Assembly (NCBI GenBank): GCA_033964015.1
Contig: CM066925.1
Location: 496,001 to 560,000, forward strand
DNA length: 64,000 bases
Reading direction: 5' to 3'
From: Scolanthus callimorphus
Taxonomy: Eukaryota; Cnidaria; Anthozoa; Actiniaria; Edwardsiidae
Position 1 is the first letter of the stretch; the number at the start of each line of letters is the position of its first letter. Of this stretch, positions 22,067 through 55,968 are shown piece after piece. Below the pieces are notes generated by a model, which was not told the origin of the DNA, made no database searches, and saw only the letters and a list, made by a program, of their open reading frames with translations. The translations under genes were made by a program, and so were the position numbers.

Positions 22067-22260
22067 ACCAGTCTATGCATAATATATATATATATATTTA
22101 CATTTTATAATTTTTGTATTGTCATTGTAACCCGTTAAGTGTTGGGGGCGTGTCTCGTCGGGACCTCCGTGTCCGTTTACTCGCCCCCTTCACGTGACAT
22201 TATTTATTTATTTATTCCTTCCAGTCACGTGTAGAGTCTCTAAAATAAAAATAAAATAAA

Positions 22261-38712: not shown

Positions 38713-39098
38713 TTTCCTTTTCTTGTTCACCATTTAAAAGGCATTGATAAGTAAGCTTAAGTAATCAATTGGGATTTCTTTTTGCGCAGATTCTTGTTTG
38801 TGTAGCTTTCAACTGTTTCCAAGGGGGAATTTTGAGAGATTTGAAGGCCACACTATCACAAAGCAAACAAATTTTGCCAAATAAGAATTATACTATTTTA
38901 CAGCATTACTTTATTTTTATCTCTGTTGCTTTGCTGCAGTTTCCTCACATTTTGCATTGTGGCCAAGAGCCCACAAAAATACCGCCACAAAGTTGTTCCG
39001 CGCCGCGACCGTGACCGTACCGCGACTAAACGATTTCATTGGCGATTTCATTCCATCTACAGCAGGCCTGGTTCCGTACCGCCACCGCGACAGTACCA

Positions 39099-39750
39099 CG
39101 ACACTTTTCACAGTCATACGAAATCTGCTCTAGTGATCTGTATGTTGATGGCTCACTTTACCATGACATTTAATCCACACAAAAACATCAATGATATTAC
39201 ATACAAAAATTACTAGATAGGATAGTTATATTAAGTACAAAAATATAGTACAAGAATATTACTTACTGCTGATTCAGTACAAACTGCTCAAAAAATAGTT
39301 TGGCTTACTTCAACATCATCATTCTCAGAATAAAAAAAGAAAATGCCGAAAACTGCTTTCATGCCATACACAATCATCTTTCTTGAGTGATGGGACTCAC
39401 ACAGTCTCAAGTTTATGAAATTTGATAGCAAAATGTTTTAGATCTAATATAAGAATGTCTTTACAATTTATGCAATTCTTAAAAGTTAAGGTAAAGTAGG
39501 TGCTTATATAGCGCTTATCTTTAGAGCTCTAAGCGCTTTACATTTTTGGATAACTCATTCTATAGAAACCAGTTTTATAATAATGAGTGTGTGTTAGTAT
39601 GGAGAGTTCTGTGACACAGAGGTTGGGCAACTTCCGACGGTCCTCGTGGTTCTTTTACGCCCCTCTGATTCCGGTTAGTGTAGTGTATGTGTGAGACGGG
39701 ACCTACGGTTTAACGTCCTTATCCGAGAAGATGAGGTATGATAAAGGATT
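39099..39750. repeat. About 430-bp tandem unit, copy 1 (interrupted)
   Basis: 39099-39483 and 39732-39750 match 55541-55944 of copy 2 (ACACTTTTCACAGTCATACG, GATATTACATACAAAAATTA, TGAGGTATGATAAAGGATT). It is split by a SINE-like insertion and then, at ATT (39748-39750), by DIRS B. The remaining piece lies at 55511-55540. Confidence 0.9.
39484..39731. mobile_element. SINE-like insertion, about 248 bp
   Basis: Present in copy 1 of the tandem unit, absent at the same place in copy 2 (near 55921), so it moved in. Features: a hairpin TAGCGCTTATC..CTCTAAGCGCTTTA at the start, GGTTCTTTTACGCCCCTCTG and AGACGGGACCTACGGTTTAA in the second half. A relative is at 13570-13900. No target duplication clearly visible. 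Confidence 0.75.
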
Positions 39751-39985
39751 CTCTTTCGGTACACTCCACATTATGGGATAACTGTGCATTCCTTGTCAGT
39801 ACTTGGGGTCAGCGGTCACACTTCAAAGCAATCCTTTGTTATGTAAATAGTTACCATATAAACAGCCAACACGCGTGATAAATCCATTCTCCTTTTCGTG
39901 CTTATACAGTCGGCGGTAAAAATCATTTGCGAAGATAAATTTCTTTCGTCGTGTCTTCAAGAAATTGGCTTACAGCATCCCTCCA

Positions 39986-40504
39986 ATGGACCCGGAAATA
40001 GAAGACGAATCTATACAAACGCTCGAAGCGAGCGAAGATCAAATTATGCTCGAAGTGGGCGACAAATCTGCTGAACAAGAATCGAACCAAGATCTCGAAA
40101 TTGACCTGGACGATTTACGAAATCAGCTAGGTCTGGACGAATTATTTTCGTCTATGCAGTCGATGAAATCACTCCTGCTACAATCTAAAGCGACAGCGAC
40201 TAAAAGACCAGCGCCTGATCCTGCTGAGTCGAACAAGCGTTCTTGTCCTGAGTCGCAGCCACGTGCTGATACTGACTCTTTTGACCCAACAGGGCCTATT
40301 TCTCTTAGTAATGCTGAAGCAGCACCAGAATTACTTGACCTACCGTCAATTTCTGACGATACGGACGGCAAAGGGCCTAAAGTAAACGAGATTTTAACCT
40401 CGAGGATCAATAAAGCTTGCACCAAGAAAGCTTTGGAAACAAAACTTAAGGAAATTGAGGCGAAGTATAAAGCCCGGAAAACTGCAATTTTCTCTGTGTT
40501 CTAA
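39986..40504 (+). pseudogene. Gag of DIRS B, N-terminal part
   Basis: Start chosen at ATG 39986 (MDPEIEDESIQTLEASEDQI); the open frame upstream lacks an ATG. It is acidic with a predicted helical C-terminus (KKALETKLKEIEAKYKARKT) and ends at 40504. The Gag continues in another frame from about 40530. The first part contains DELFSSMQSMKSLLLQSKAT and a Pro/Ser-rich middle, as in other DIRS Gag proteins. Confidence 0.7.
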
Positions 40505-40529
40505 TGTTTAATCTTGAATTCTGATTTGA

Positions 40530-40933
40530 ATTAGCCAGACAGTCGAGGTCAAAAGATCTGGCTTTGCAAGAGGCCCAGAGAGGCATAGTTAAAGGCGTTC
40601 AACCGGTGATTGAATTGGTTGAGAAGATTCTGAATGCTCAGAAGGCAAAGGAAACCTTGAGTCCAGACTCTTTTGTTACACCACTGGTGAATGCAATCAC
40701 TCTTTTGTTACACCACTGATGGATGCAATCACTTTATTGTGCAATGCATCTTTTAGACTCTCAACTGTAAGAAGAGAAACAATGCGAGACTGCATTAATA
40801 CAAATTACCGTTCTCTCTGTAGTAAGAACACCCCACCTGGTAAGTGGTTGTTTGGGGATGAACTTCCCAAACATATCAAAGAGATTGCTGAAGTTAACAA
40901 GATGGCCAAGAAGCTAGGCCCAAACCAGTCATC
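40530..40933 (+). pseudogene. Gag of DIRS B, central part
   Basis: Frame with VQPVIELVEKILNAQKAKE, then, after a 32-bp tandem duplication (40667-40698 and 40699-40730) that shifts the frame, DAITLLCNASFRLSTVRRET, GKWLFGDELPKHIKEIAEVN. The pattern LFGD-L-K is typical of DIRS Gag. It is cut at 40933 by the nested element; the reading frame resumes in step at 52053 (GSRGRGSSYPQGQGRK) once one copy of the 6-bp duplication is discounted. Confidence 0.75.
40928..40933. other. 6-bp target duplication GTCATC, left
   Basis: Identical to 52047-52052. Together they bracket 40934-52046. Confidence 0.9.
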
Positions 40934-41732
40934 AGTAGTGAAGCTCGCATTGGAGGCGCCTCGTTCTCGGGGAGACATTGGGGATAAATGGGGAGTCATA
41001 GGGGTGGAGACAGGGGAGTCAGAGGAGTGGAGACAGGGGAGTCAAATGGGAGGCAAAAGGGGGAGACAGGGGAGTCAGAGGGGTGGAGACAGAGGAGTCA
41101 AAAGGGGAGTCAAATGAGGAGTTAAATGGGGAGTCAAATGGGCGTCAGAGGGGTGGAGACAGGGGGGAGAAATGGGGAGGCAAAAGGGTGGAGACGGGGG
41201 AGTCAGAGGTGTGGAGACCGGGGAGTCAAAAGGGGAGTCAAATGGGGGTCAAAAAGTGGCCATCAAATGGGGAGACAGGGGAGTCAAGGTGGAGACAGGG
41301 GAGTCAAAAGGGGAGTCAAATGGTCGTCAAAATATGGGAATCAAATGGGGAGACAGGGGAATCAGGGTGGCGGGGGAGTAAGGGATGGTATTATATTTAT
41401 AAATGGTAAATAAAATTTTACAGCCACACCGCAACAATTTTACAGCTCTAACGTGACTGACGAATCTTTCAAGAAACAATGGCTTCAAAAATTCTACACG
41501 AAAACGGAGAGCAGCTCTTTCCCTTGGGAGAAAATGGGTTTTATGGTTCCGTGGTTGTGTATAAGAACTCTGTCAAGTTCCACATCAGAGAGTACAAAAA
41601 GAGACTCAACGGAAAAGTCAGCCCAACGTTCAAGGGGGTCTGTCTCACGTTTCAAGAACTCGTGGATTTGCAAAATAGTATTGGGGAACTTTACGAAATA
41701 GCAGAAAGCTTAGAGTTTGCAAGGAATCACAC
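40934..41732 (+). repeat. Left terminal inverted repeat (799 bp)
   Basis: Contains a G-rich minisatellite at about 40970-41390 (GGGGAGTCAAATGGGGAGAC AGG variants) and the first 85 codons of the PC4-like gene. Complementary to 51248-52046, with small differences inside the minisatellite. Confidence 0.92.
40970..41390 (+). repeat. G-rich minisatellite in the terminal repeat
   Basis: Degenerate units of 15-30 bases built from GGGGAGTCA, AATGGGGAG and GGTGGAGACAGG. Runs of four or more G are closely spaced, so G-quadruplexes are possible on this strand. Three reading frames remain open through it and give GESNGETGES-like peptides; these are not taken as genes. Confidence 0.85.
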
Positions 41733-41952
41733 CGCCGAAATTTTCGAGGACGAGGGAGTGACACCCCAAAACAAGGAAGATTATGGCGAAAGAGAAAAAA
41801 AGTTAATCGCAGCACCACCGAGAGGAAAAAGGGAAAACCTGCAAGAGCCACTGAGGTTAACGAAGCGACGCATAAATTTCAATCAAATATCACCTGACGC
41901 TACAACCGTCCAGTGGGATGAGGATCTATCCCCGTCGCAGCAACTACATTGA
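41479..41952 (+). CDS. PC4-like single-strand DNA-binding protein
   Basis: 157 residues from the ATG at 41479. Residues 20-80 (GSVVVYKNSVKFHIREYKKR, then FKGVCLTFQELVDLQNSIGE) follow the PC4/SUB1 fold pattern: beta strand, IREY motif, G(V/I)xLT/N, then the C-terminal helix LQNSIGELYEIAESL. PC4 proteins bind single-stranded DNA in transcription and replication. The tail (residues 85-157) is basic and acidic mixed, with KRRINFN. The first 85 codons lie in the terminal repeat; the rest is unique to this end. AATAAA-type signals follow at about 42025 and 42069. No intron is needed. Confidence 0.65.
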   Translation: MASKILHENGEQLFPLGENGFYGSVVVYKNSVKFHIREYKKRLNGKVSPTFKGVCLTFQELVDLQNSIGELYEIAESLEFARNHTAEIFEDEGVTPQNKEDYGEREKKLIAAPPRGKRENLQEPLRLTKRRINFNQISPDATTVQWDEDLSPSQQLH

Positions 41953-42490
41953 AAGAAATCAATAACAAGAACATTTCTTAAGTGGACAGTTTAAAAATTT
42001 GTATTGTAAAATAAGATCTTATTCCGAAGAGGTAATAAATTTGTTAACACACTGAATGAGTTGTATGAATAAATCCGGATAACATTCAAAACCTGACCAG
42101 TTCCTTTCCGCAAAATCGCGCACGTGTCAAAACATTATGCTCGGGTCTATTTCTGCTCTAATTAGCGAGATATACCTATTCTGAAGCAATCCAAAAATTA
42201 AACCCTTTCTCAACACAATTTATCGCTATGTATATTCTTAATTGTACATTTGAACTATAGACTTTGCGAAATAGACTTGTTCAAAATATCAATAAAGAAA
42301 AAGAAAATTTAACACAAGAAGGGACTGAAAGTAAATCAGAGAGTCTGCAAAAGAGACTCTTTCGAGACACATACGCCTGCGGGTTAATAATCATTTTATC
42401 ATGGCCCAGCCTGAGAACGTCAACGCACGAAGAGTAATAATGTAATATATAATAACAGGTAACAACATTAGACCAATTAAGATCCTACTG
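41953..42490. other. Element interior without a recognised gene
   Basis: AT-rich, with short frames such as one around 42285-42400 (SESLQKRLFRDTY). A possible acceptor, TTTTCATTCATACAG, ends near 42519. Confidence 0.45.
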
Positions 42491-42889
42491 GTGTGTACAA
42501 ATGTTTTCATTCATACAGCGGGTTCGAAGTTGTTTTATCACCCCATCCTTAGAAAAAGTCAACGCTTGAATAAAATCCCGCGGAATAATGTTCAATTAAA
42601 AACCGTAACGACTAATTTAATTCAACTTTGGGAACTTTTATTGAAATACATATTATATCAAGACTCTTCTATAGCTATCTATAAACTAAGAACATTACAC
42701 AAATGTATAGTAAATCTTTTAAACAAAGAGCAACATGTTGCTTATAATTTTCCATTCATACAACGCGTGTACTCACTGCTCCCCTCTCACCTTTTAGGGA
42801 ATACCCCTAGCTCAAGGAGAAGACAAATCTATTGTTTCTTTTTGTACCTGTCGTTTATATATAAAAAAGTAAACTTAACTGATTTTTGA
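42491..42889 (+). CDS. Unknown 132-residue protein
   Basis: Open frame without a clear ATG at its start (it opens on GTG), so it may begin as an exon after the acceptor near 42519. Rich in Leu, Ile, Tyr and Arg (WELLLKYILYQDSSIAIYKL, YCFFLYLSFIYKK). The C-terminal third is hydrophobic enough for a membrane segment. No family recognised. The next sequence to the right is the retroelement remnant. Confidence 0.4.
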   Translation: MCTNVFIHTAGSKLFYHPILRKSQRLNKIPRNNVQLKTVTTNLIQLWELLLKYILYQDSSIAIYKLRTLHKCIVNLLNKEQHVAYNFPFIQRVYSLLPSHLLGNTPSSRRRQIYCFFLYLSFIYKKVNLTDF

Positions 42890-42929
42890 GGCACAAGAGA
42901 CAAGTGGACTTTATGTTTTACGACGATAA

Positions 42930-43336
42930 ATAATGAAAACCGCCCATATCAATTCAATTTTCAACCAGGACAGCTGAACCAACTACAACAATTAATCCAG
43001 AAAACAGTGCGATCCGAGCTTAATTCGGCCAGTGCTAGAAATAATCCACCCCAGGGTAATTTTAATGGCCAGTCTAGAGAAAACGGACAGCAAGGACCGC
43101 GCGCTAATTATCAAAGAACGTATAATACAAATCGCGGTGATTTCGGCCCAGCTAGAAGAACAACCCTAGGCGAGGTTATTTGTACACGCTGTAATAAGGT
43201 CGGGCATAGCAGCCGCAATTGTAGAAGTCAATTTCCATCGAATTCGAGGGATAATCGGGGTCCCGCCCCTAACACATCTTACAATAGGCAAAACCAAGGG
43301 TTTGCTCGATCCAACAACCACCCAGCTTTAAACTAG
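42930..43336 (+). pseudogene. Retroelement Gag, nucleocapsid part
   Basis: Open frame with a Gln/Asn/Arg-rich stretch and one CCHC zinc knuckle, CTRCNKVGHSSRNC (CX2CX4HX4C), followed by a basic tail, ending at TAG 43334-43336. It is the nucleic-acid-binding end of a Gag protein; capsid sequence upstream is missing, so the element is truncated on this side. Confidence 0.65.
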
Positions 43337-43476
43337 AATCGCCAACTTTCGAACCGAGAGGAAATGTTGGCTTCTCAAATGAATCGTCATCTGTAAATAA
43401 TGATTCACATTCAACAAAAAATAAACAATCACAAAATGAAAAAACACCAAAAACAACTACGATCGATATAAGTGCT

Positions 43477-45414
43477 ATGGTTGGTAGTGCCACTAAGACG
43501 GAAAATAGTCAAGAAATTAATGAAAATAGTGATTCGGAAGAAAATGATACCACTGAAATCAACTCTTTAGAGGAAGAGGTTCGCCTTAGAACTACTAAGA
43601 TATTGGGATGTGATCCACTTTTGTATTTTGATCAAATAAAACGTGAGTCTGAGCTCTCGGACAGCGCTCACAATACAGAATCTTCAATTTCTTTTGCTAA
43701 TGTTTTAGGAAATGCACATATATCTAAACAACTTTTCATGGAACAAAATAAACAAAACCAGGGACAAAAGAAATCCAAAACTAAAGTAGGACAAAAGAAA
43801 TCTCGAGGCAAAGGTAAACAAATTCAGAAAGAAAAGCCTCTCGCTAATATTGACAGCATAGAACCGCCTTGTTTAACCGTGACCACGCAGGTTACTATTC
43901 CAGAAAATGAAGCATGTGTGCGCCTCACAGTGAAAGAAATGAAAAGTTCACCTGAACAAACTACAGGGTCTAACACTTCTTTGGGTTCGCTATCGAGCGT
44001 CACCAATAGTCCTAACCAATTAAAAACGCCAAACACCTCTAAAGATATTTCACACGAGCACAAAAAAGAACTTTCCACACCTATTGAGCCAATATATAAC
44101 GCGCAAGTCCCTAGCCTTTCTTCCTACCACAATTCAAATCTACTCTCGGATATACATACTTCATCTAACGGACAAGCTCTTAGCGTTTCTGCCTACCACA
44201 AATCAATTCATCAATCAAATATCCTTACTTCACCAATCAAGACTACAGGTAAGACCAAATCTCACCCTAAGCGCAATATCCTAATACGCGTTTTTCTCTT
44301 TTTCTTTTTCTTTTTCTTTTCGCGCAAATTTAAGTGCCACAAAACAGCACCAACTGAATTATCTCTTCCATCGGACAGACAAAAACATATACTCGTTACT
44401 GACTCGAGTTCTAGTACAGCGTTTAATTGCATGAATGCGTTCCCTAATGCTAATCAAAGTACCTCTTCAGATATAAGTAAGCAAATTTATTCGGATAATA
44501 GTGATTCACGAGAAAATACCATAGAGTATTCTAAGGGAGATGACAAATCGAAAGGAAATGATAGTTCATCTAAAATCCCTTCGCAACAAAAGATTGCCAC
44601 TGAAATTGATTGTCACATGCTTAACGAAAAAGCAGACCAATTTTTTAAATCACGACAAATACACGAGACAATTTCCTCTCAAGAGAATAAAATGCTAAGC
44701 TCAGAGGAACCTAAGATTTGTACAACAAATAAATTCACACAGTTGAAGGACATAGCTAATCCCAGCTGTAATTTGAAAAATGTTGCAAATTTAGGCATAT
44801 TACAATTGTTGCCGTCAAGCACCAATTTTGAGTATGATAGTGTTAGTGATGAAAATATAGCCTCAGAAATTGTAAAAGTACAAGAAAACATTTATAGCGA
44901 TAATAACCATGAAAATGAGATTTTAAACAGCTATGAGATTTTGAAGTTAAACGAACGAAAAGAACTAGCCAAAACCGGCCAAAATCGTTCGAAAAATATT
45001 AAAGAAGTCCTACAAAAAGAAACATGTTCACTAGTAAACCAAGATATTTCTAATGAGGACACGAGACAAAATTTCAAAGAAGCAAACGAATTAAGTGAGG
45101 TAATCACAAATTTCAGAGAAACAAAACAAGAAAATGAATTAATTGAGGCAATCACAGATTTCAAAAAAGAGGCAAAACATAATGATGAAGCACAAGTGTT
45201 TTCAGGGAGACGCTGTAGTGAATTAGGACAGTATGGCCCGGATGAGCCAGATAACATTTTCCGCTATAAGAACGAAGATTTCAGTAAATGTTTAGATTTT
45301 TCAACAGATGATTCAGTAAAGGTAATAGAATTTTGCCGATCCGTCAAAAACCTAGCTAAAGCCTTGCAACAAGGTTACCCTCTTTTCATATCGTATGACC
45401 AGATACAATGTTGA
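43477..45414 (+). CDS. 645-residue low-complexity protein of the retroelement remnant
   Basis: Long uninterrupted frame rich in Ser, Asn, Glu and Lys, with a homopolymeric Phe run from TTTTTC repeats (44293-44318). It does not carry an aspartic protease, RT or integrase motif. It lies between the zinc knuckle and the Env-like frames, where pol is expected. It could be a lineage-specific ORF or a frame kept open by AT-rich bias; the length of more than 600 codons argues for past selection. Confidence 0.45.
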   Translation: MVGSATKTENSQEINENSDSEENDTTEINSLEEEVRLRTTKILGCDPLLYFDQIKRESELSDSAHNTESSISFANVLGNAHISKQLFMEQNKQNQGQKKSKTKVGQKKSRGKGKQIQKEKPLANIDSIEPPCLTVTTQVTIPENEACVRLTVKEMKSSPEQTTGSNTSLGSLSSVTNSPNQLKTPNTSKDISHEHKKELSTPIEPIYNAQVPSLSSYHNSNLLSDIHTSSNGQALSVSAYHKSIHQSNILTSPIKTTGKTKSHPKRNILIRVFLFFFFFFFSRKFKCHKTAPTELSLPSDRQKHILVTDSSSSTAFNCMNAFPNANQSTSSDISKQIYSDNSDSRENTIEYSKGDDKSKGNDSSSKIPSQQKIATEIDCHMLNEKADQFFKSRQIHETISSQENKMLSSEEPKICTTNKFTQLKDIANPSCNLKNVANLGILQLLPSSTNFEYDSVSDENIASEIVKVQENIYSDNNHENEILNSYEILKLNERKELAKTGQNRSKNIKEVLQKETCSLVNQDISNEDTRQNFKEANELSEVITNFRETKQENELIEAITDFKKEAKHNDEAQVFSGRRCSELGQYGPDEPDNIFRYKNEDFSKCLDFSTDDSVKVIEFCRSVKNLAKALQQGYPLFISYDQIQC

Positions 45415-45841
45415 CAGGGCCAGATATAACAATCATGGTAAAATAATATCTATTCGGATTGACATTGGATTACCGACCAGCTAAATACCAAGAAATTTCA
45501 CAAACACACACAAAAAAAAATAATAATAATCAGCATAGAAGATGACGAGTCGAGCATGACAACATTGACACACTTTCTTCTACTTTCAATGGCGAACTGA
45601 AATCATCAAATTTGCTCAAGATGAGAAATGTCATTACAATTCGGTACTTGAGTTTTTTTTTTTCAAAATTAACCTTTGAACATGGTAAAGTTTTATCCTC
45701 TATTTTACGAGAAAAAGAACTTTGAACATCGCACAGGCAGATACAGCAATTTACACATATGTTAATTACCCTGCCGAATACTCAAACAGTAATCAAAGCT
45801 GATGCGTTAGCAAAGTGTTACTCTAATCAAGGAAACTATGT

Positions 45842-46318
45842 TTGTCCTGTACTAATACACTAAGAATGGACGCAAATGTAGACTGGCTTGGGCTGCCTTG
45901 GCACCCTGGATCTCAGGTTGATCATGTGCGTAACCACAGGCTAACAGACTGTACAAGTCTACAGGATATAATTCACATTGGAGGACACTTCTACCTCTCG
46001 GCACGCAGACAACGTCTATCACTCAAAAATGGAACTCTGGACATGACTCCGCTAAGTATTTACCAGCTTCCATGCAATTCTACCGACGAACACTTGGACA
46101 TGGCTTTCGGCCCTTGCCCAGAGACTTTGACTTTCTCGTTACCAGTATTTTCTAACACCAAGGTGCAATATGTACAATACACACCTGGCACTGACGACCA
46201 AACTCTCAAGCTGCATTATCAATCGCTCAAATTCGCGCCTAAGATCAAGATAAAACCATTCTCAAGTCTTTGGACCAAACTTATAATCAAATCAACGATC
46301 GCATTTCACAAGAAATAA
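45842..46318 (+). pseudogene. Env-like glycoprotein, ectodomain part
   Basis: Open frame of about 158 residues with scattered Cys (CTNTLRM, TDCTSL, LPCNST, GPCPET) and one NxS/T sequon (N-S-T near residue 79). Ends at 46318, where a second frame overlaps by about 50 bases and carries a coiled-coil-like helix and membrane anchor. The arrangement is that of the C-terminal half of a retroviral-type envelope, separated by a frameshift. Position just before the 3' LTR supports this. No fusion peptide was identified. Confidence 0.45.
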
Positions 46319-46575
46319 CGCAAGTACGCAACGACATCGACAAAATTCACGAGGCTTGGTTAACAACATCAGCCGAGATAGCTGCCTACATAGCTCTCTC
46401 CTTGACATTGTTACACACCTTATTGGCCATCGGCGCTGCTTATTATTATCACAGAAACCGTTCCTCTACCAAAGTACTCACCAAATCCACTACAGTCGCC
46501 AAAGTCGAGGAAATTTCGTTAAAAGATTGTTGTGAGAACTGTGACGAGCCCTTATCTGAACCTACTAACGTTTGA
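46270..46575 (+). pseudogene. Env-like glycoprotein, membrane-anchor part
   Basis: About 100 residues: a helical, heptad-like start (residues 1-35), a hydrophobic span at about 38-60 (IAAYIALSLTLLHTLLAIGA), then basic RNRSSTK and a short cytoplasmic tail with CCENC. It is the anchor and tail of a type I membrane protein. It is out of frame with the preceding ectodomain-like part. Confidence 0.5.
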
Positions 46576-46599
46576 CTCTTATATACAATCTCCATAGCA

Positions 46600-47115
46600 A
46601 TGGCTTTTCCTTTGGTAGTAGTTATCGCCCTTGACGGTTTCAAGCACGGCAGGGAGCCCTTCCGGCCGAGAACAATCAGCCTCGTAGACCCCTTTGGTCC
46701 GACCAGCCACACCGTCGTCATTCGGGTGCCGGAGGCCAACACGGCAAATGTGGCGGCCCTCACCACGTACACTTACCAAGCGCGCCATCAAAAACACAAC
46801 GTGGGCAGCGACGGTATTCCACTTCCCGCGGCTTGGGCCATTCTACAGGGATTGATCTACCAAGTGCAGCGGGAATACCCGACACCGGCTACGCCCATGA
46901 CAATCCTGGTGAAGGGCACCGAACAGTTGGCCCTTCTACAGAGCTGGTTGCCGGACCTCCCAGGCAGCCGTTTTTTCAATTTAGACGACATGGGTTGTCC
47001 TAGATTTAAAGAATTGGCGGCTGCATGGGAGGAACCAACGACAAACCGCAAGGCGCGGGCATACGCTTTGTGGTTTCGTCGCGACCTAACAAACCGCAAT
47101 TATTTATGCCGTTGA
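46600..47115 (+). CDS. Accessory ORF of the retroelement remnant
   Basis: 171 residues, intact from the ATG at 46600 (MAFPLVVVIALDGFKHGREP). GC-richer than its neighbours. The block order, an N-terminal beta strand with ALDGFK, later LPGSRFFNLDDMGCPRF, recalls RNase H-fold accessory proteins found next to invertebrate retroelements (DxxG.. then LxDxxCP), but this is a weak recollection, not a firm family call. It lies between Env-like frames and the LTR, a usual place for accessory genes. Confidence 0.5.
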   Translation: MAFPLVVVIALDGFKHGREPFRPRTISLVDPFGPTSHTVVIRVPEANTANVAALTTYTYQARHQKHNVGSDGIPLPAAWAILQGLIYQVQREYPTPATPMTILVKGTEQLALLQSWLPDLPGSRFFNLDDMGCPRFKELAAAWEEPTTNRKARAYALWFRRDLTNRNYLCR

Positions 47116-47372
47116 TCCACATACCTACAGAAAGAAGAAACGAACACTAAAACAACAACAACAAAAAAAAAGAACAATTGCATGTAATCATCTTCTCTTT
47201 CTATATATATATATATATTATCTTTCTTCGATATACGAATACATGTAACACTATTTTATCAATTTCACTTAGTTTCTCGTATACAAAAAAAAATTTATCT
47301 TCATATTTTTCAGACATACCCTTGCATTTTAGTCTTGCTCAGAGGACTGAGCGTCTGAAAACGGGGGGGTAT
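47116..47372 (+). other. 3' region with polypurine tract
   Basis: Short TA repeats, then GAAAACGGGGGGGTAT at 47357-47372 immediately before the LTR, the expected plus-strand primer. Confidence 0.7.
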
Positions 47373-48120
47373 TGTTATGATACGTTTTTCGGGTAATTTT
47401 GATTGAATTGGGAATCGTGAATCAAATATAAAAAATACAAAAAACTGTACAATTTAGTCTAAACCAAAACAAATACTTTTTCTTAGATTTGACATGTTGA
47501 CTTTTGTTCAATAACAGAGATTTCAATATTGAGTTTTACTTTCAAGCAATTTCCTATTTTCCAGTTTCACTCAACACCTGAGTTTCCTGGCAATTTGGAA
47601 TGTGTAGATTCAGTTGCGTTCCGGACTTAAGGCGCAAGGTAAAAGTAAATATCTTAACTTTCAATTTTAATTGGAGTTATTACAGAAAACTTTATTCTAA
47701 AATATCTCTGAAATTCTCTAAAGAACTATACTAAATTTCCTAGCCAAACTTTATATTTTGTTCTCTGTTATCTAATGAATCATTTCAGAGTTAAATAGAA
47801 TTTCTTAAATACGATGTTTCACAGACCTTTAATTTAAAATTGTAAGACACGTAATCTAAATATCTGTGTAAATACAGCTGATTGAAAAAGGGTATAAATA
47901 GAGACCCTGAACTTGTAATCTTTAGGTCAGTCTGACTTTTAGTCAGCCAGTAATAACCAGTAAAGTTGTGCAGTACCAATCTGTGCGTCTCTCTTACTTT
48001 CCTTGCTCAATTAAAGTAATATCCATAAGAGCATATTCCTATTCCGTCCCTTAGTCTAGGACGAAGGTTTGTGAGCTTTTCCCTCTTTCCCCCAAGAGGA
48101 CACCAAAAAGGATCACAACA
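47373..48120 (+). repeat. 3' LTR (748 bp)
   Basis: Begins TGTTATGATACG and ends GGATCACAACA (TG..CA). It contains GGTATAAATAGAGACCC near 47890 (TATA) and AATTAAAG near 48010 as a possible poly(A) signal. No matching 5' LTR exists in the window. Confidence 0.8.
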
Positions 48121-49589
48121 ATATCTCAATCAGGGAGATTGGCGGGCTTTAGAGGAAATCATGGACGATCTTTCTGAGCAAATAGAAAATTTACCCGTAA
48201 GTAATGCTTATCATTTATTCTAAAATGTACTTTGATTTGATAACTAAAAAGAATAGTTCAAATGACGTGGCACATAAGTTAGATAAACATGGAGTCAAGT
48301 AATTATCTCTCGCCGTTCATCATCTAATTTTTTTTTTAATCAAGACTCTTTGTCCCGCAGACGTTTCGTCATTGCTCAAAAGTTCAAAAATTAATGCTAC
48401 AAGTTTATTAAGCCACCTGATAAGACAAACTGACCTTATGATAACATAAAACCTTACGATAACATAAACTTTGAAATGTATGGCAAAATGCTTTAAAAAA
48501 AGGCTAGTACTTAGCCAAACTCAATTAACTAAAATAACGGTGTTTCACAAATTATATCAAATCTCTTCAACTTTTGTGATCAACACGAAACCGTAATTTT
48601 CAAGCCCATCATTAAACAGACACCCTTGATTCTTCTAAACAGAAGAAGTTGTCAGTCGTCTGTAGCTAAGTTCCTCATCGGATACGGAACCACTTGATAG
48701 GGATCCCACAGGAATGAGTTGTAATTGCGGGGTTCTCTCGAGTTTTAATTGTTTTCTTTTTCTAAAAGCCTTCCAGGCTAGAGTCAAAATAATACATGTT
48801 AAAATGAAACCTGGGATTCCTATTGACGAACCTAAGATGCCGGCAGGTTTATTTTGCTACCCACATCCGGCTTGGACGTATTCTTTGTAGTCGTGAACCT
48901 GAAAGTAATCCGGTTTGTCGGGCGTTTCGTATCCTTGATATCCTTTCCCGTTGAGTGAAATGTAGTTTTCGTAATTGTAGCAGGGATTGAAGTAGTAGTA
49001 TTTTGAACATTTCGACACTGTGTATTTCTTACCCTAAGCCCGCTTCTTCTTAGTTTCGCGATACAAATACAAGTGGTGGGATTATTTTCCATATCTATGT
49101 CTTGGAAATGTACCAGCGTATTAGTTGCATTCGGGCACTCTCTAATGTTATTATCTCGTATAGAAAGGAATTCCAAACTCTTGAGAACTGGAATTGTCGT
49201 GATTCCTTTGCCGCTGCAGTCAATCGAAAGTAACCGCACTGTTTTTGAGACAGAAAGTCGCACAAAACCTTGCATTCGTTGTATGCTTGCACAAAGATTT
49301 ATTTTGTACTTTTCTCGGTCCCGCCGAAGCGTTGGGAGTAAGGTAATGTTGATTTCATTTTCATAAGCTCACGGCCTTGCAATTTGTAAATTTCCATTTG
49401 TCGATCCAATAAAGTAAAGCAGCAATGAGTTACAATACTCATATAGATTTCTTGTAGGACGTTATCGAGATCTCCGACGACGATGAAGATGAATTCGAAG
49501 AAGAGGAAGACTGGGAAGATGAATATCCGATCCGCTGTGAAACGGCCGAGGATTATGTCGAGGCCTGGCAAGAAGGCTATGGAAGGTAA
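48121..49589 (+). CDS. Small acidic spliced ORF (putative)
   Basis: Exon 1 (ATG at 48163) reads MDDLSEQIENLP and ends at a strong donor CCC/GTAAGT (48197/48198). Exon 2 starts at 49457 after TAGATTTCTTGTAG and reads DVIEISDDDEDEFEEEEDWE then YVEAWQEGYGR, stop at 49587-49589. Both exons are in phase 0. Alternatively, the exon-1 frame extends upstream and was cut by the LTR element. The minus-strand LRR frame lies entirely inside the intron. Acidic proteins of this type are common in large DNA elements, with no function implied. Confidence 0.4.
48650..49365 (-). pseudogene. LRR / mucin-like / transmembrane protein
   Basis: Minus frame to 48832 has leucine-rich repeats (LLSIDCSGKGITTIPVLKSL, FLSIRDNNIRECPN) and an LRR C-terminal cap-like Cys pattern (NNPTTCICIAKLRRSG, NTQC), followed by a Ser/Thr/Lys stalk. 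A one-base shift near 48840 leads to a transmembrane span (IPGFILTCIILTLAWKAF) and a short tail with SVSDEELSYRRL, stop near 48650. It is thus built like a cell-surface type I glycoprotein. No signal peptide was found; the frame upstream of 49365 meets a TGA. Its presence in a mobile element with no obvious transposition role is odd; capture of a host gene is inferred. Confidence 0.55.
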
Positions 49590-50883
49590 CGTCGAGGAGA
49601 TAATGCCATATGTCACGACGAAGGTGGCGAGAATTTAGGAGACATGTCATGTTGTACACTGCTCCACGATCTACGGCGACAGCCACGACGACGATTAAGA
49701 TTTTGACGCGAAGCGCCTGATCGATCGATATAACCTTTTTAAATGTCTTCGCGTTTCCTCATGACATCTGAGCAACGCTTCCTTCTCTGGCTCTTAAACA
49801 CTTCTCTCTCGTCACCCTCCACATAAATCGCTGCCGTTTCGTAACGGATGGGCACATCCAAACTCAAACACCACAAGCATAGCCAAGAACAATAATACCA
49901 TATTCAAGAACTCGAGAACGTCCTCGTCACCACCGCCATCTATAATCTTCAACTTCAAGACGTTTATGTATATAAAATGTCTAAGATATTTATGTATATA
50001 AAATGATATCCTCTAATAAGTCATCTTGAATTAAAAAAAACATCGCTTCCCCGCAATCAAACGACTAATTTATGCGCTCTTAGCAGAGGCAGCTTTGCTA
50101 GCGGCATCCTGGAAAAGGAGACACGTGTATAGGCAATATACATGGATTATCGTCAAATGGATCTCGCAAAAATAAAGGGATGATGGCGATGAACTCCCAA
50201 TGGTGAATGCAAAAGGCTACTGTTTTAGAACAGCCTTCTATAGTTATAATATTAAATTACGGTTATAGTACTAAATTATAGTTATTGTATTAAATTAAAG
50301 TATAAGTACTGAATTAGAGCGGTTTTCATCCGGCTGTGAAACAAAAACTATTAGTCAGTGTTTAATAGTGCCTACTAGTCATACTTAATAAGGAGAATAC
50401 AATAAAAATGACTTTCATAGTGTGTATTAGTGCGTATTTGGTTAGTAACTATTTCACTGTCGGATGAAAACCACTCTATAGTTTTAGAACTAATATTTTC
50501 AGCTAACTTATTTTACACTAGTAGCATAAGCGCATGACGAGGAGGTTGAGGAAAAAGGGAGTTATACACATATTTTTTTTCTGTTTGCTTGTTCTGTAAT
50601 AATTATTAATCTCGGCCATTTGCGTCCATTCCCGGCCATAGTAAATCAAACGAGTCACGGATAATAATTGGTAATTGGTAATAATTTCGGTAGTAACCGT
50701 CAGGTGTAGCGTTCGGGGAGGTTTATCGCCAAATCCTACACAACAGCTTCTTGCCATACAGATGGCGTGCATCTGAATTGTTCACCACGGCTCTTGCCTC
50801 TCGCGCTTATTTGGAGGCAGTTGAATGTGATGATTAATGTACGGTGGCTGGTTGTGAGGTTAACCATCCTTTCTCGTGGTACT
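49590..50883. other. Element interior, little recognised
   Basis: On the minus strand near 50104-50060, after CTCCTTTTCCAG, a short Ala/Lys-rich exon end reads DAASKAASAKSA then stop; its upstream exons were not found. An ATTA/GTATTAAATTA repeat lies near 50240-50310. No other gene supported. Confidence 0.4.
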
Positions 50884-51229
50884 TTATACTAAAGCATTCG
50901 CTTTGCAACTACCAAAAACATCGGCCAGCACTTGCTTGTTTGCTGGGGTATCAGGCTTGTTATCTACCAAGATGTAACTGTATGCCATTTCTGTTTCTTG
51001 GAGATAAGCGTTCATAAAGCGTTCCCTATTTTTTTCTTCTTCAAATATTCGTTCAGCTACAATCCCTATTTGCTTCCGGTCGCCGGGACTACGAAACAGC
51101 GCTAAGTATAACTGTGCATTTCGATTAATGTCGGTGTTGTGTTTCCTTTCTGGAACGTGCTTTGTAACAACATATCCACACTTGCGTTTCTGTGGCGACC
51201 CTGAGTAGACGAGCGACCAGTCCACTATC
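50884..51229 (-). CDS. Unknown protein or exon next to the right terminal repeat
   Basis: About 114 residues (IVDWSLVYSGSPQKRKCGYV, NAQLYLALFRSPGDRKQIGI, ERIFEEEKNRERFMNAYLQE), stop at 50884. The frame is continuous with the truncated PC4 copy but separated by TAA TGA at 51238-51246. A possible acceptor GAAGCTTCAG ends near 51230, so it may be a last exon. No family recognised. Confidence 0.45.
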
Positions 51230-51243
51230 TGAAGCTTCCGTCA

Positions 51244-51501
51244 TTAAGTGTGATTCCTTGCAAACTCTAAGCTTTCTGCTATTTCGTAAAGTTCCCCAAT
51301 ACTATTTTGCAAATCCACGAGTTCTTGAAACGTGAGACAGACCCCCTTGAACGTTGGGCTGACTTTTCCGTTGAGTCTCTTTTTGTACTCTCTGATGTGG
51401 AACTTGACAGAGTTCTTATACACAACCACGGAACCATAAAACCCATTTTCTCCCAAGGGAAAGAGCTGCTCTCCGTTTTCGTGTAGAATTTTTGAAGCCA
51501 T
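51244..51501 (-). pseudogene. Truncated second copy of PC4-like gene
   Basis: Same first 85 residues as the left copy, including the full PC4-like core (IREYKKR, GVCLTF), then TAA. The core domain is whole, so it might still make a short ssDNA-binding protein; the tail is lost. Confidence 0.65.
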
Positions 51502-52046
51502 TGTTTCTTGAAAGATTCGTCAGTCACGTTAGAGCTGTAAAATTGTTGCGGTGTGGCTGTAAAATTTTATTTACCATTTATAAATATAATACCATCCCTT
51601 ACTCCCCCGCCACCCTGATTCCCCTGTCTCCCCATTTGATTCCCATATTTTGACGACCATTTGACTCCCCTTTTGACTCCCCTGTCTCCACCTTGACTCC
51701 CCTGTCTCCCCATTTGATGGCCACTTTTTGACCCCCATTTGACTCCCCTTTTGACTCCCCGGTCTCCACACCTCTGACTCCCCTGTCTCCCCCCTTTTGA
51801 CTCCCCATTTGTTCCTCCTGTCTCCACCCCTCTGACGCCCATTTGACTCCCCATTTAACTCCTCATTTGACTCCCCTTTTGACTCCTCTGTCTCCACCCC
51901 TCTGACTCCCCTGTCTCCCCCTTTTGCCTCCCATTTGACTCCCCTGTCTCCACTCCTCTGACTCCCCTGTCTCCACCCCTATGACTCCCCATTTATCCCC
52001 AATGCCTCCCCGAGAACGAGGCGCCTCCGATGCGAGCTTCACTACT
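51248..52046 (-). repeat. Right terminal inverted repeat (799 bp)
   Basis: Complement of 40934-41732, with the C-rich face of the minisatellite at about 51590-52010. The duplicate PC4-like frame on the minus strand (51501 down to 51244) keeps the first 85 residues and then stops two codons past the repeat boundary. Confidence 0.92.
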
Positions 52047-52052
52047 GTCATC
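52047..52052. other. 6-bp target duplication GTCATC, right
   Basis: Matches 40928-40933. Confidence 0.9.
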
Positions 52053-52221
52053 ATCTGGATCAAGAGGTCGTGGTTCCAGCTATCCTCAAGGGCAAGGACG
52101 CAAGGTCTATTTTGTAGGATCAAGCAACCGCAACAACTCATACGGTCGGAGGACAGACTCAAGGAACAACCAGAATTACAAGATGTCTGCAACTACAACC
52201 AAACAGAACACCTCTCAATAG
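52053..52221 (+). pseudogene. Gag of DIRS B, C-terminal tail
   Basis: The frame includes GSRGRGSSYPQGQGRKVYFV and SNRNNSYGRRTDSRNNQNYK, an RG-rich Gag tail, and ends at 52219-52221. Its reading phase is the one expected if the nested element and one GTCATC are removed. Confidence 0.75.
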
Positions 52222-52229
52222 AGGTAGGT

Positions 52230-53940
52230 CGATATGCTGGTAATTTAGCTCACTTTCTCTCAATCTGGAGATCTATCACTAGTGACCCCTGGGTGCTGGT
52301 AGCAGTGTCGGGGTATGACTTGGAGTTTAGCACAAGACCTGTGCAAACCAAACTCCCTAATCCTCCTCTTTTGTCTGTATCAGATAAGGAGATTATAGAC
52401 CTTGAGCTTCAGAAGCTACACCACAAGGGTGCAATAGAAAATGCTTCATTTTGCAGAGATCAATTTATTTCTAACATGTTCTTGGTTCCCAAGAAGACGG
52501 GAGATCTCAGACCAGTTATAAATCTCAAACCCCTCATTGAGTTTGTAGAAAAAATTCATTTTAAAATGGAAAACATCAGTTTTGTCAAAAATCTCATCAA
52601 GTCTGGAGATTTTCTAGCCTCAATTGATTTGAAGGATGCTTTTTTTAGCATACCCATTTGGGAACCTGATAGAAAATATCTCCGTTTTTTCTGGAACAAT
52701 CAAATTTTCCAGTTTCATGCTTGCCTTTTGGTTATAGTCTCGCTCCTCGAGTCTTTACCAAAGTACTCAAACCAGTCATAGCACATGCCAGGTTTTATGG
52801 GGTCCGTTTAGTTGTGTTCATTGATGACATTCTAATTATTGGCTCTAATTCTCAAGAATGTTCAGAACATGTTACCATGGTAACACAACTTCTTAAAAGC
52901 CCAGGATTCATTATTATTGCTGAGAAGTCTCATTTTGTGCCTACTCAGTCTTTGATTTTCCTGGGATTTATGGTTAACACCATTTCAATGAAATTAATTC
53001 TACCAGAACACCAAATTTCAAAGATCAAGAATTATTGCCAAACCCTTTTGTAGCAAAAGGTTGTCTCTTTATCTGATATAGCCCAAGTTACAGGACTATT
53101 GGTATCTGCCTTTCCAGCTGTCAATCATCTTGAGTTATATTACAAATCAATTGAATTTTGTAAATCTCATCAACTACACCGGGGGGCTACTTTTGATGAG
53201 ATAGTCACTCTTAGTGATCAAGCATCATCAGATCTCTTGTTTATAATTGACAATATTGATTCCTTCAATGGAAAATATGTATGTGAAACTCCCATTGATC
53301 TCTATATTGGGAGTGATGCTAGTAACACTGGTTGGGGTGCACATTGCAATGGCATTGCTACAGGTGGGCCTTGGTCTAAATCTGAGGCTGACAATCACAT
53401 CAACTGCCTCGAGTTACTTGCTGCCTTTTATGCATTGCAGTCATTTTTACCTCACCATAGATCAGCTTATCATTTTCGTCTTAAGCTAGACAATTCTAAT
53501 GCTGTAGCATGCGTAAATAATTTTGGCAGCATTAAATCCCCATCCTTAAACAAATTGTCTAGATCTATTTGGGACTGGTGTATTGCTAACAAAATCAACA
53601 TATCTGCAGAATCTATCCCAGGAGTTGACAATACTATTGCAGATTCTATGTCAAGACAAAATTCTAACAAATTAGAATGGGCTTTGGATTTTTCTGTTTT
53701 CAAGACTCTGTCTATACTGGCTTTCAAAGCAGATATAGATCTGTTTGCCAGTAGACTGAACAAACAACTACCAGAACCTGAATGTTATGCTGTCGATGCT
53801 TTCAGCTTTCCATGGACACCATTTAAATGTTATGCCTTTCCTCCTTTCTGTCTTATCCCTAGAGTGCTAGAAAAGATGGAACAGGATCATGTGGACCAAT
53901 TTCTGTTAATTACTCCAGTGTGGCCAACGCAGAGTTGGTA
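52230..53940 (+). pseudogene. RT and RNase H of DIRS B
   Basis: Fingers SNMFLVPKKTGDLRPVINLK, motif A ASIDLKDAFFSIPIW (52614-52660), a shift near 52715, then MPFGYSLAPRVFTKVLKPVI, VVFIDDILIIG (catalytic DD). TAG at 53051-53053 splits the thumb from RNase H, IDLYIGSDASNTGWGAHCNG, LELLAAFYALQSF, FRLKLDNSNAVACV, and the DIRS linker DIDLFASRLNKQLPEPECYA. One frameshift and one stop; otherwise well preserved. Confidence 0.9.
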
Positions 53941-55006
53941 TCCTCTGCTTCTGGGAACGTCATACCGTGCACCAATTCTTCTACCACAGGACCAACATCT
54001 CCTACATCTGGCTCACTCCAGCCTTCTTCATCCTCTACACAACAAGCTTCAGCTTGCCGCATGGATACTATCTGCCAGCACCTTCAGACAAGAGGACTTT
54101 CTCCAGAGACAGCTAAGCTCGTCGGTGCATCCTGGACCCAGGGGACTGAGAAAAAGTTCAAGCCTGTATGGAAGATATGGAGTAGCTGGTGTGTTCAGAA
54201 GCAGATTGATCCCATTCAGGGTAATGCAGTCCATCTAGCTAATTTCTTAGCTGATCATTACAAGCAGGGTAAGAGCTACAACACCTCTGAACTCCTACAG
54301 ATCTGCAATATCCACTACTTTACATGTCATTAAAGAGGACAAGCTTGGAGATCATCCCTTAGTTACTAGATGTCTTAAGGGAGTGTATGTTTCCAGACCA
54401 CCTACTCCCAGGTATGAGTCTACATGGGATGTTTCCAAAGTTACTTCCTATTTGGCTTTGCAGTCTCCTGTTCATGATTAGCTTGAAGGCTCTGACATTA
54501 AAAATTGTAGCACTTTGTGCCCTTGTGACAGCTCAGAGGGAACAAACTCTGTGTTCTCTGGACATCAATAATATGACTGTTACGAATGACCAGATTAAAT
54601 TTGTAATCTCTGCCAGGATAAAAACATCTCGTCCTAGTAGAAAGCAACTGAGGTTTATATTTCTTCGTTGCCCTCTAAGCCTAGTGTCTGTCCTAAGCAG
54701 ACTCTTTTGCATTATATTGATCATACTAAGGATTTACGTAAGCCTGATAATCAGACTCAATCTCAGTTATTTGTGTCATATGTTAAACCACACAAGCCTG
54801 TTTCCACATCAGTCAGGCAGGCATTGATACTAATTTGTTTAAGGCACATAGTGTCAGAGGTGCTTCTACTTCTGCACTGTATCAGAGAGGTGCTACTATG
54901 GCAGAAATTTTGAAGATGGCTGATTGGTCATCTGAGAGAACCTTTCAGCGATTCTACAATCGCACCACAGAACCAGTTGCCACAGTGGGCAGATTAGTTC
55001 TTTCCT
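53920..55006 (+). pseudogene. Tyrosine recombinase of DIRS B
   Basis: N-terminal part in the frame 53920-54333 (QGTEKKFKPVWKIWSSWCVQ, VHLANFLADHY), then after frameshifts the catalytic Arg in VALCALVTAQREQTLCSLDI (54387-54827), and in another frame FKAHSVRGASTSALYQRGAT (HxxR) and ERTFQRFYNRTTEP with the likely nucleophilic Tyr, ending TVGRLVLS with TAA at 55006-55008. All boxes present, at least three frameshifts. Confidence 0.85.
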
Positions 55007-55140
55007 AAGAAATTTCATGTAGACAAGTGCCATATCTATAATAAATGCACTTGAAGTATGCTCTATATGGTGTTCCTTTTTTCTCATAGTATTTGTTTTA
55101 TTTTTCTGGCTGCGGTTCTTTTAAATCGCACAGTTATCCA

Positions 55141-55512
55141 ATAATGTGGAGTGTATCGAAAGAGAATTTCCAAATTAGACGAGAGGTTACTTACCTTGAA
55201 GTGTAATTGTAATTCTCTGAAGATACACGGAGCATTATGGGATAATGCCCCCCCCCCCCCCCCTTACAAAAAAAAACATTTGCCTGTCCCTTCCACTTTT
55301 GTTGGGACCTTAGCCAGGCCGCACTCCAGGAGAATGGATTTATCGCGCGTGTTGGCTGGTAACTATTTACATAACAAAGGATTGCTTTGAAGTGTGACCG
55401 CTGACCTCAAGTACTGACAAGGAATGCACAGTTATCCCATAATGCTCCGTGTATCTTCAGAGAATTACAATTACACTTCAAGGTAAGTAACCTCTCGTCT
55501 AATTTGGAAATT
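55141..55512. repeat. DIRS B internal complementary region and right terminal repeat
   Basis: 55141-55166 is the complement of the left extremity (TTCTCTTTCG..CCACATTAT at 39749-39774), and 55167-55240 the complement of the right extremity (55436-55512). The two halves meet at AATT (55164-55168). A poly-C tract at 55248-55264 separates it from the terminal repeat. Confidence 0.9.
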
Positions 55513-55540
55513 CTGAGTTGTTACGTTGACCACTGGTCCG

Positions 55541-55968
55541 CGACACTTTTCACAGTCATACGAAATTTGCTCTAGTGATCTGTATGTTGATGGCTCACTT
55601 TACCATGACCTTTATTCCAAACAAAAACATCAATGATATTACATACAAAAATTACTAGATAGGATAGTTATATTAAGTACAAAAATATAGTACAACAATA
55701 ATACTTACTGCTGATTCAGTACAAACTGCTCAAAAACTAGTTTGGCTTACTTCACCATTCTCAATCTCAGAATAAAAAGGGAAAATGTAGAAAACTGCTT
55801 CATGCCATACACAATCATCTTTCTTGAGTGATGGGACTCACACAGTCTCAAGTTTATGAAATTTGATGGCAAAATGTTCTAGATCTTATATAAGAATGTC
55901 TTTACAAGTTATGCAAATCTTAGTTGAGGTATGATAAAGGATTCTGAGTTGTTATGTCGACCACTGCA
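55541..55968. repeat. About 430-bp tandem unit, copy 2, with the DIRS empty site
   Basis: Matches copy 1 throughout; its 3' part reads GAGGTATGATAAAGGATTCT GAGTTGTTATG, the uninterrupted target of DIRS B. Confidence 0.9.

What the first reader, a model, noticed from the sequence alone, without database searches (positions are those of the whole stretch)
40934..52046. 11.1-kb Polinton-type insertion without recognisable Polinton genes
799-bp terminal inverted repeats, AG...CT ends and a 6-bp duplication (GTCATC at 40928-40933 and 52047-52052) fit Polinton/Maverick integration exactly. The flanking DIRS gag returns to a continuous frame if the insert and one GTCATC are discounted, so the boundaries are secure. 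Yet PolB, integrase, ATPase, protease and capsid genes are not visible; the cargo is a PC4-like gene, an LRR membrane protein, an acidic ORF and unknown ORFs. This may be a new non-autonomous or minimal virus-like lineage.
Basis: partly seen in the sequence, partly recalled or inferred. Interest (0 to 1): 0.92.

Follow-up and report, generated by a model that had tools for sequence, protein, structure and literature searches.

The report
Rearranged Polinton with a duplicated end
The insert is a broken, non-self-sufficient relative of complete Polinton virus-transposons that sit elsewhere in the same animal genome, and it leads to a striking group of relatives in that genome whose DNA is one end of the virus copied back on itself as a near-perfect mirror image.

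Summary
In detail: 799-bp inverted ends (8 mismatches), AG...CT termini, 6-bp duplication GTCATC, and a DIRS gag frame that runs on across the empty site. 'A new minimal lineage without Polinton genes' does not. The same genome holds three full-length Polintons with similar ends and perfect 6-bp duplications, carrying PolB, ATPase, protease, capsid, penton and integrase genes. The window copy is a non-autonomous chimera: left end with an intact PC4-like ORF, a decayed LRR membrane gene, a packaging-ATPase fragment, and a right end replaced by an inverted copy of the left end. Most other 'cargo' ORFs belong to a nested, 5'-truncated LTR retrotransposon (42929-48121).
The ATPase fragment led to something stranger: palindromic Polintons. 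In 11 of 13 fetched ATPase loci the element is an inverted repeat, with arms 0-1% different in the ATPase gene and mirrored module boundaries. A separate 9.3-kb palindrome folds back inside PolB and is flanked by GGGATT duplications. Best mechanism: snapback (end-duplicated) genomes form during replication, then integrate. Copy number and autonomous partner of the palindromes remain open.

The parts
40928..40933 (.). target-site duplication GTCATC, left copy
52047..52052 (.). target-site duplication GTCATC, right copy
40934..41732 (+). left inverted repeat, 799 bp: G-rich minisatellite, then the start of the PC4-like gene
51248..52046 (-). right inverted repeat: an inverted copy of the LEFT end, including the first 84-85 codons of the PC4-like gene; relatives have a different right end (ORF170, mostly with a second PC4-like gene)
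41479..41952 (+). intact 157-aa PC4-like ORF (Pfam PC4, 30.4 bits, cut-off 25)
   Evidence: dN/dS 0.12 against the C2 copy
40934..42902 (+). stretch homologous to the left part of related Polintons (C63: 89% over element positions 683-1859, 81% over 1863-1969; C2: 73% over 1-1157)
42929..48121 (+). nested LTR retrotransposon, 5'-truncated; the longer matches elsewhere in the genome are 85-97% identical
47371..48121 (+). its 3' LTR, about 751 bp; solo-LTR-like matches elsewhere
   Evidence: G-rich tract just upstream read
43007..43336 (+). zinc-knuckle (gag-type) ORF of the retrotransposon
   Evidence: (zf-CCHC 20.5 bits, just under the cut-off of 20.8)
48119..49223 (-). decayed LRR membrane-protein gene of the Polinton (homologous to the 361-385-aa gene of the full copies)
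49224..50574 (.). unassigned stretch; no match in the fetched loci; contains a MITE-like inverted repeat (50315-50341 / 50452-50478, 27 bp, 89%)
   Evidence: genome search not answered
50575..51249 (-). fragment of a Polinton packaging-ATPase gene (ORF 50884-51225)
40719..40933 (+). host DIRS gag, left of the insertion
52053..52221 (+). host DIRS gag, right of the insertion; frame continues to a stop

Best explanation
The 11.1-kb insert is a non-autonomous, chimeric Polinton derivative. SHOWN: Polinton ends and 6-bp duplication; PC4-like and LRR genes homologous to the left region of full-length Polintons in the same genome; no PolB, integrase, protease, capsid or penton gene; an ATPase fragment closest to a different Polinton family; a right end that is an inverted copy of the left end, longer than the repeat of the full copies; a nested LTR retrotransposon. 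INFERRED: while the element was a linear replicating molecule, the polymerase switched to the opposite end (panhandle or snapback pairing of the repetitive ends), so that both termini became left ends; the molecule was then inserted into DIRS gag by the integrase of an autonomous relative acting in trans. It decayed and was hit by the retrotransposon.
For: Ends, TSD and frame. Full-length relatives with similar ends and perfect TSDs: GGCGTC, AATTGA, GACTTG, 3 of 3, read; gene content; many of the 120 listed PolB relatives bear PF03175. In the three full copies the shared terminal repeat is about 415-530 bp of minisatellite and PC4L lies outside it. Five right ends of relatives carry ORF170 (C2; C3:36.99; C12, C63, C3:30.4), with PC4R in four of the five; PC4L matches there are only 25-29% cross-hits onto PC4R. 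In the window, arm positions 264-799 are identical while all 8 differences lie in 1-263. Retrotransposon. That an end can be doubled before integration is shown independently in the same genome by L041, a 9,317-bp palindrome folded inside PolB with GGGATT on both sides.
Against: The order of end duplication and integration is not shown for the window copy itself; conversion between the two ends after insertion would look similar. No second copy with the same junction (51247/51248) turned up among the matches scored, so this structure is not shown to have moved as such. 49224-50574 (1.35 kb) is unexplained. The full copies differ from the window copy by 22% in PC4 protein (dS about 1.0), and C12 shows frame breaks, so the mobilising partner is not identified.
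Confidence: 0.82

Rival explanations
1. The 799-bp repeat arose after integration, by one-sided gene conversion between the two ends of the inserted copy, anchored in the shared minisatellite.
For: Inner 536 bp identical, differences confined to the outer 263 bp; the natural repeat shared by the two ends offers the anchor.
Against: The right arm abuts foreign ATPase sequence at the arm boundary, with no left-type homology there to end a conversion tract. In L041 end-doubling clearly preceded insertion.
Confidence: 0.2
2. A new minimal virus-like Polinton lineage that lives on PC4, LRR and acidic proteins.
For: Intact PC4-like ORF with dN/dS 0.11-0.12 against two full copies, long repeats, TSD.
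Against: One such copy found; LRR and ATPase disrupted; the larger ORFs belong to a nested retrotransposon; the dN/dS reflects the functional ancestors as well.
Confidence: 0.03
3. Assembly artefact (collapsed or fold-back reads).
For: Long inverted repeats are prone to mis-assembly (general knowledge).
Against: Eight differences between the arms, unique DNA between them, perfect TSD and a continuous DIRS frame.
Confidence: 0.02

Closest known systems
Polinton/Maverick elements (full-length copies C2:28040764, C3:36975259, C12:1487146 in this genome)
   Same: AGTAGT... ends, 6-bp TSD, minisatellite TIR, PC4L and LRR genes at the left. PMC10045372 gives 6 bp as the Polinton TSD length (passages read).
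   Different: The window copy lacks PolB, integrase, protease, capsid and penton, has only an ATPase fragment, and its right end is a left end.
Snapback (end-duplicated) defective genomes of AAV (PMC8235507, abstract read)
   Same: One genome end in inverted duplication, with partial gene content; seen most clearly here in L041.
   Different: AAV is a single-stranded virus with hairpin ends (recalled); here the molecules are integrated Polintons with TSDs. Working likeness, not membership.
Adenovirus left-end packaging domain (PMC5033970, abstract and passages read)
   Same: A linear genome with a terminal protein whose packaging signal lies at one end and also works near the other; doubling that end could favour packaging.
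   Different: No packaging signal has been mapped in these Polintons; the link is an inference.
Polinton-like viruses of cryptophytes with long TIRs (PMC12220804, passages read)
   Same: TIRs of hundreds to thousands of bases, some with short TSDs, 6 bp being typical for rve integrase; that study kept TIRs of 100 bp-8 kb.
   Different: The passages read do not describe near-complete palindromes or mirrored module boundaries; the rest of the paper was not read.

Membership tests
Polinton/Maverick (autonomous) | 6-bp target-site duplication | tested here: met
   GTCATC/GTCATC
Polinton/Maverick (autonomous) | terminal inverted repeats with AG...CT ends | tested here: met
Polinton/Maverick (autonomous) | protein-primed PolB and rve integrase genes | tested here: not met
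   tblastn with PolB and integrase of C2 against the non-retrotransposon parts of the window element: no hit; of ten window ORFs, the six of the retrotransposon stretch or near it other than o42491 match no fetched Polinton locus
Polinton/Maverick (autonomous) | packaging ATPase, protease, capsid proteins | tested here: not met
   only an ATPase fragment; no protease, MCP or penton hit
Non-autonomous Polinton derivative | ends and partial genes homologous to full-length Polintons of the same genome | tested here: met
Non-autonomous Polinton derivative | moved in trans by an autonomous partner | not testable with these tools
   C2 and C3 copies have long open PolB (742 + 204 aa, two ORFs) and integrase (362 aa) frames; mobilisation not observed
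Snapback / end-duplicated defective genome | both termini derive from the same genome end | tested here: met
Snapback / end-duplicated defective genome | formed before integration | tested here: inconclusive
   window: not shown; L041: fold-back inside PolB plus intact ends and TSD GGGATT
Snapback / end-duplicated defective genome | extrachromosomal or encapsidated form | not testable with these tools
   no reads or particle data

The most novel reading that the evidence does not exclude
This genome carries a persistent lineage of palindromic 'snapback Polintons': satellites made of one Polinton end mirrored on itself, holding a packaging ATPase, an acidic protein and, in part, a PC4-like gene, copied through a fold-back intermediate that regenerates one arm from the other, and mobilised by autonomous Polintons. 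The window element and the PolB palindrome L041 are separate products of the same end-copying tendency. This would be a genomic fossil record of defective, snapback genomes for a virus group whose replication has scarcely been observed.
Probability: 0.45. Interest if true: 0.78.

Novelty: new variant of a known kind. Interest (0 to 1): 0.55.

Why it matters
Polintons encode a protein-primed PolB for replication (PMC6431247, passages), but how their genomes replicate and are packaged is, as far as I recall, inferred from genes rather than seen. End-duplicated and palindromic copies that carry target-site duplications would be footprints of replication intermediates, much as LTRs are for retrotransposons. 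If upheld, they give a way to study Polinton replication, packaging signals and satellite parasitism from sequence alone, and arm divergence might serve as a clock for each insertion.

Tried and rejected
Rejected: minimal lineage (cargo explained by nested retrotransposon and decayed Polinton genes); artefact. PHROGs gave only weak hits (E 0.03 or worse). A viral-contig scan with the palindrome ATPase found no relative. The acidic ORF of the palindromes has seven unnamed relatives at E <= 0.001. I first noted L038, L039 and L040 all as inverted pairs (note); re-reading one search shows L039 as a single 1.15-kb fragment, so it is counted as not palindromic. An end search with up to two mismatches did not find both ends in the six other palindromic loci (L028, L030, L032, L034, L035, L038); in L028 the palindrome runs up to the edge of the stretch fetched. 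Not answered: the search for elements sharing the ends of the palindromic family (so its autonomous partner and copy number are open), the search with window 49180-50570, a search with the L041 end and a protein census of the ATPase. Literature: 'Polinton, palindrom' (44 papers, 15 listed), 'Maverick, Polinton, long inverted repeat' (3 listed), 'Polinton, non-autonomous, terminal inverted repeats' (20 of 32 listed), 'Polinton, adintovirus' (19 of 20 listed) and 'Polinton, PC4' (none) listed no title on palindromic Polintons; listings were read, plus passages of four Polinton-related papers among them or cited there, in an open-licence library.
Full report
OBSERVATION. The window shows inverted arms 40934-41732 and 51248-52046, 799 bp with 8 mismatches, all in the outer 263 positions, the other 536 identical. 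Both arms start AGTAGTGAAGC and are flanked by GTCATC. Joining the two host flanks gives one open DIRS gag frame to its stop.

FULL-LENGTH RELATIVES. The window lies in a 597-Mb genome. The left arm finds paired ends at several places. Three are full-length Polintons: C2 (17.8 kb), C3 (17.8 kb) and C12 (23.2 kb), end to end. Their 6-bp duplications are GGCGTC, AATTGA and GACTTG (3 of 3, read). They encode PC4L and an LRR membrane protein at the left, PolB, ATPase, ORF264, then protease, capsid, penton, integrase with chromodomain, a second PC4 (PC4R) and ORF170 at the right. Pfam supports integrase, chromodomain and PC4 above cut-off; adenovirus-type protease, double jelly roll and A32 ATPase only below cut-off, and gives nothing for the protein I call penton, a label from recall and position. 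ORF170 and ORF264 are working labels. The first PolB ORF had no Pfam PolB hit, but it finds 1371 relatives, and many of the 120 listed bear PF03175. The C2 PolB differs from the C3 and C12 copies at dS about 0.002, so these copies are recent. I did not establish that any of them is intact: PolB lies in two ORFs, the C3 capsid gene in two, and in C12 the ATPase, protease, capsid, penton and integrase matches are split between frames.

THE WINDOW ELEMENT. It shares DNA with the left part of these and of C63, the closest (77-97% in pieces; C63 itself has lost its left repeat). tblastn with 15 Polinton proteins finds PC4 (by four PC4 or PC4-like queries' cross-hits: PC4L, PC4R, B_PC4), LRR and ATPase pieces, but no PolB, ORF264, protease, capsid, penton, integrase, ORF170 or acidic ORF. 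In the full copies the shared terminal repeat is about 415-530 bp of minisatellite, with PC4L outside it. Five right ends of relatives carry ORF170, four of them with PC4R. In the window both ends carry PC4L, the right copy cut after 84-85 codons. The right end is thus a left end.

NESTED RETROTRANSPOSON. 42929-48121 matches a dispersed family (75 matches; 40 of 93 candidates scored). 47371-48121 recurs alone and at both ends of a longer copy on C83, so it is the LTR. The window copy begins at 42929, without a 5' LTR. This explains the zinc-knuckle and the ORFs from 43.0 to 47.1 kb. A small MITE-like inverted repeat sits at 50315-50478. 49224-50574 stays unassigned.

ATPASE FRAGMENT AND THE PALINDROMES. 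50690-51249 matches 39 other places at 79-83% (40 of 834 candidates scored, so these are the best ones only). By coordinates these are 23 loci: 15 inverted pairs, 1 direct pair, 7 single. I fetched 13 (9 pairs, the direct pair, 3 of the 7 singles). Nine of 9 pairs are long inverted repeats, L032 with the shortest main arms, 1.3 kb; of the singles, L038 and L040 are interrupted or trimmed palindromes and L039 is a lone fragment; L037, the direct pair, is not a palindrome. So 11 of 13; six further pairs are known by coordinates only, four singles not at all. Both ends were found in 5 of the 11, and the 6-bp duplications are perfect in 5 of 5: GTGGAT, ATGTAA, GATGGT, ACCTTC, TATGTC. L029 is 8,486 bp with arms 99.1% alike and a 220-bp centre. 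Each arm typically holds an ATPase of about 456-468 aa (relatives bear PF04665), an acidic ORF of about 181 aa, and an outer module; some arms are broken.

Ten arm pairs were compared over the ATPase: 0 to 0.97% different within elements (substitutions only), median 2.46% between. Over longer stretches with indels the arms are 96.2-99.7% alike. On the tree the two arms of an element group together in 8 of 10 pairs; L028 and L029 are nearly identical (0.07% apart in one comparison, less than most within-element values) and not resolved. Between the two subfamilies dS is 0.16-0.18 and dN/dS 0.28-0.32 (seven comparisons); within elements the few differences show no clear constraint. PC4 of the palindromes shows no clear constraint (0.39-1.13, few changes). 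The axis is homologous between subfamilies: L028 4421 and 4541 lie on either side of its centre at about 4477 and match L035 4261 and 4552 around its centre at about 4406. So the palindrome probably predates the split of the subfamilies, yet arms stay alike: one arm is copied from the other.

MIRRORED MODULES. Outer modules differ: ORF170 type (L028, L029, L030, L036, L038), PC4 type (L031, L037, L040) and a third (L033, L034); L032, L035 and L039 gave no outer protein hit. In the 7 elements where both arms gave hits they carry the same module. Boundaries are mirrored: homology between L029 and L040 resumes at 1010 from the left end and 1012 from the right; the same with L031, probably one shared event; with L033 it resumes at 1593 and 1594. 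Independent swaps at mirrored points are unlikely; copying one arm from the other explains it. Conversion between arms in the chromosome could do this too and is not excluded.

A SECOND, INDEPENDENT PALINDROME. PolB searched in the genome gives 108 matches (60 of 631 candidates scored), with one inverted pair, on C2. That locus, L041, is a 9,317-bp palindrome, 99.8%, with ends AGTAGTATAGTAGG and GGGATT on both sides; the axis lies inside the PolB gene, with an unpaired centre of about 11 nt (read). Each arm has an open PolB part of about 900 aa, 51% identical to the C2 PolB. Intact ends plus duplication mean it folded before it was inserted. This is what a snapback replication product would leave.

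MECHANISM. Shown: duplicated ends, TSDs, arm identity, mirrored modules, fold-back before insertion in L041. Inferred: strand-displacement replication with template switching at short inverted repeats or between the repetitive ends, followed by integration with a partner's integrase. AAV makes snapback defective genomes (PMC8235507, abstract); adenovirus keeps its packaging domain at one end, and it works near the other end too (PMC5033970, abstract and passages). A similar signal would favour end-doubled molecules; this is untested here.

LIMITS. Host identity was not tested; named ATPase relatives are from Exaiptasia, Actinostola and Porites, named PolB relatives from Paramuricea, Porites and the echinoderms Holothuria and Diadema; an anthozoan is likely. 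No other animal genome could be searched. The window fragment of the ATPase is diverged (dS 0.19 and 0.35 in two comparisons), so the chimera is old or from a third subfamily.

VERDICT. The given finding is a new variant of a known kind: a non-autonomous Polinton with a doubled end. Its main value is that it points to palindromic Polintons, for which I saw no title in the searches named in Tried and rejected.

Noticed in passing
L028-L036, L038, L040 (C14, C3, C100, C6, C2, C1, C6, C8, C10, C12, C14 of the same genome): Palindromic Polintons (6.5-9.9 kb in the five with both ends found) with ATPase and acidic ORF in the arms; mirrored outer modules.
   Followed up: partly
L041:267-9583 (C2:8197767-8207083): Palindrome folded inside the PolB gene, flanked by GGGATT.
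   Followed up: yes
L014:1072-1254 and L015:9083-9226: The DNA on both sides of the full-length C3 copy resembles the PC4-like gene (36% and 48%): it may have inserted into another Polinton's PC4 gene.
   Followed up: no
C15:12943377, 12948438, 12953498: Three PolB matches in the same orientation about 5,060 bp apart: a possible tandem array.
   Followed up: no
L017:6480-8000 and L019:7682-9233: Two right ends of the window's subfamily share about 1 kb of outside flank: one insertion, later duplicated, or a shared target.
   Followed up: partly
L017:3524-4204: ORF with a 2A-like DVEVNPGP motif (motif name recalled) inside the C63 copy.
   Followed up: no
window 39096-55922: Host DIRS-type element with repeated and inverted end pieces, interrupted by the insert.
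   Followed up: partly
window 49458-49585: Acidic open stretch (VIEISDDDEDE...) that looks flanked by splice signals; unassigned.
   Followed up: no
window 22217-23883 and 34028-35466: Tandem arrays with units of about 44-45 and 90-91 bp.
   Followed up: no
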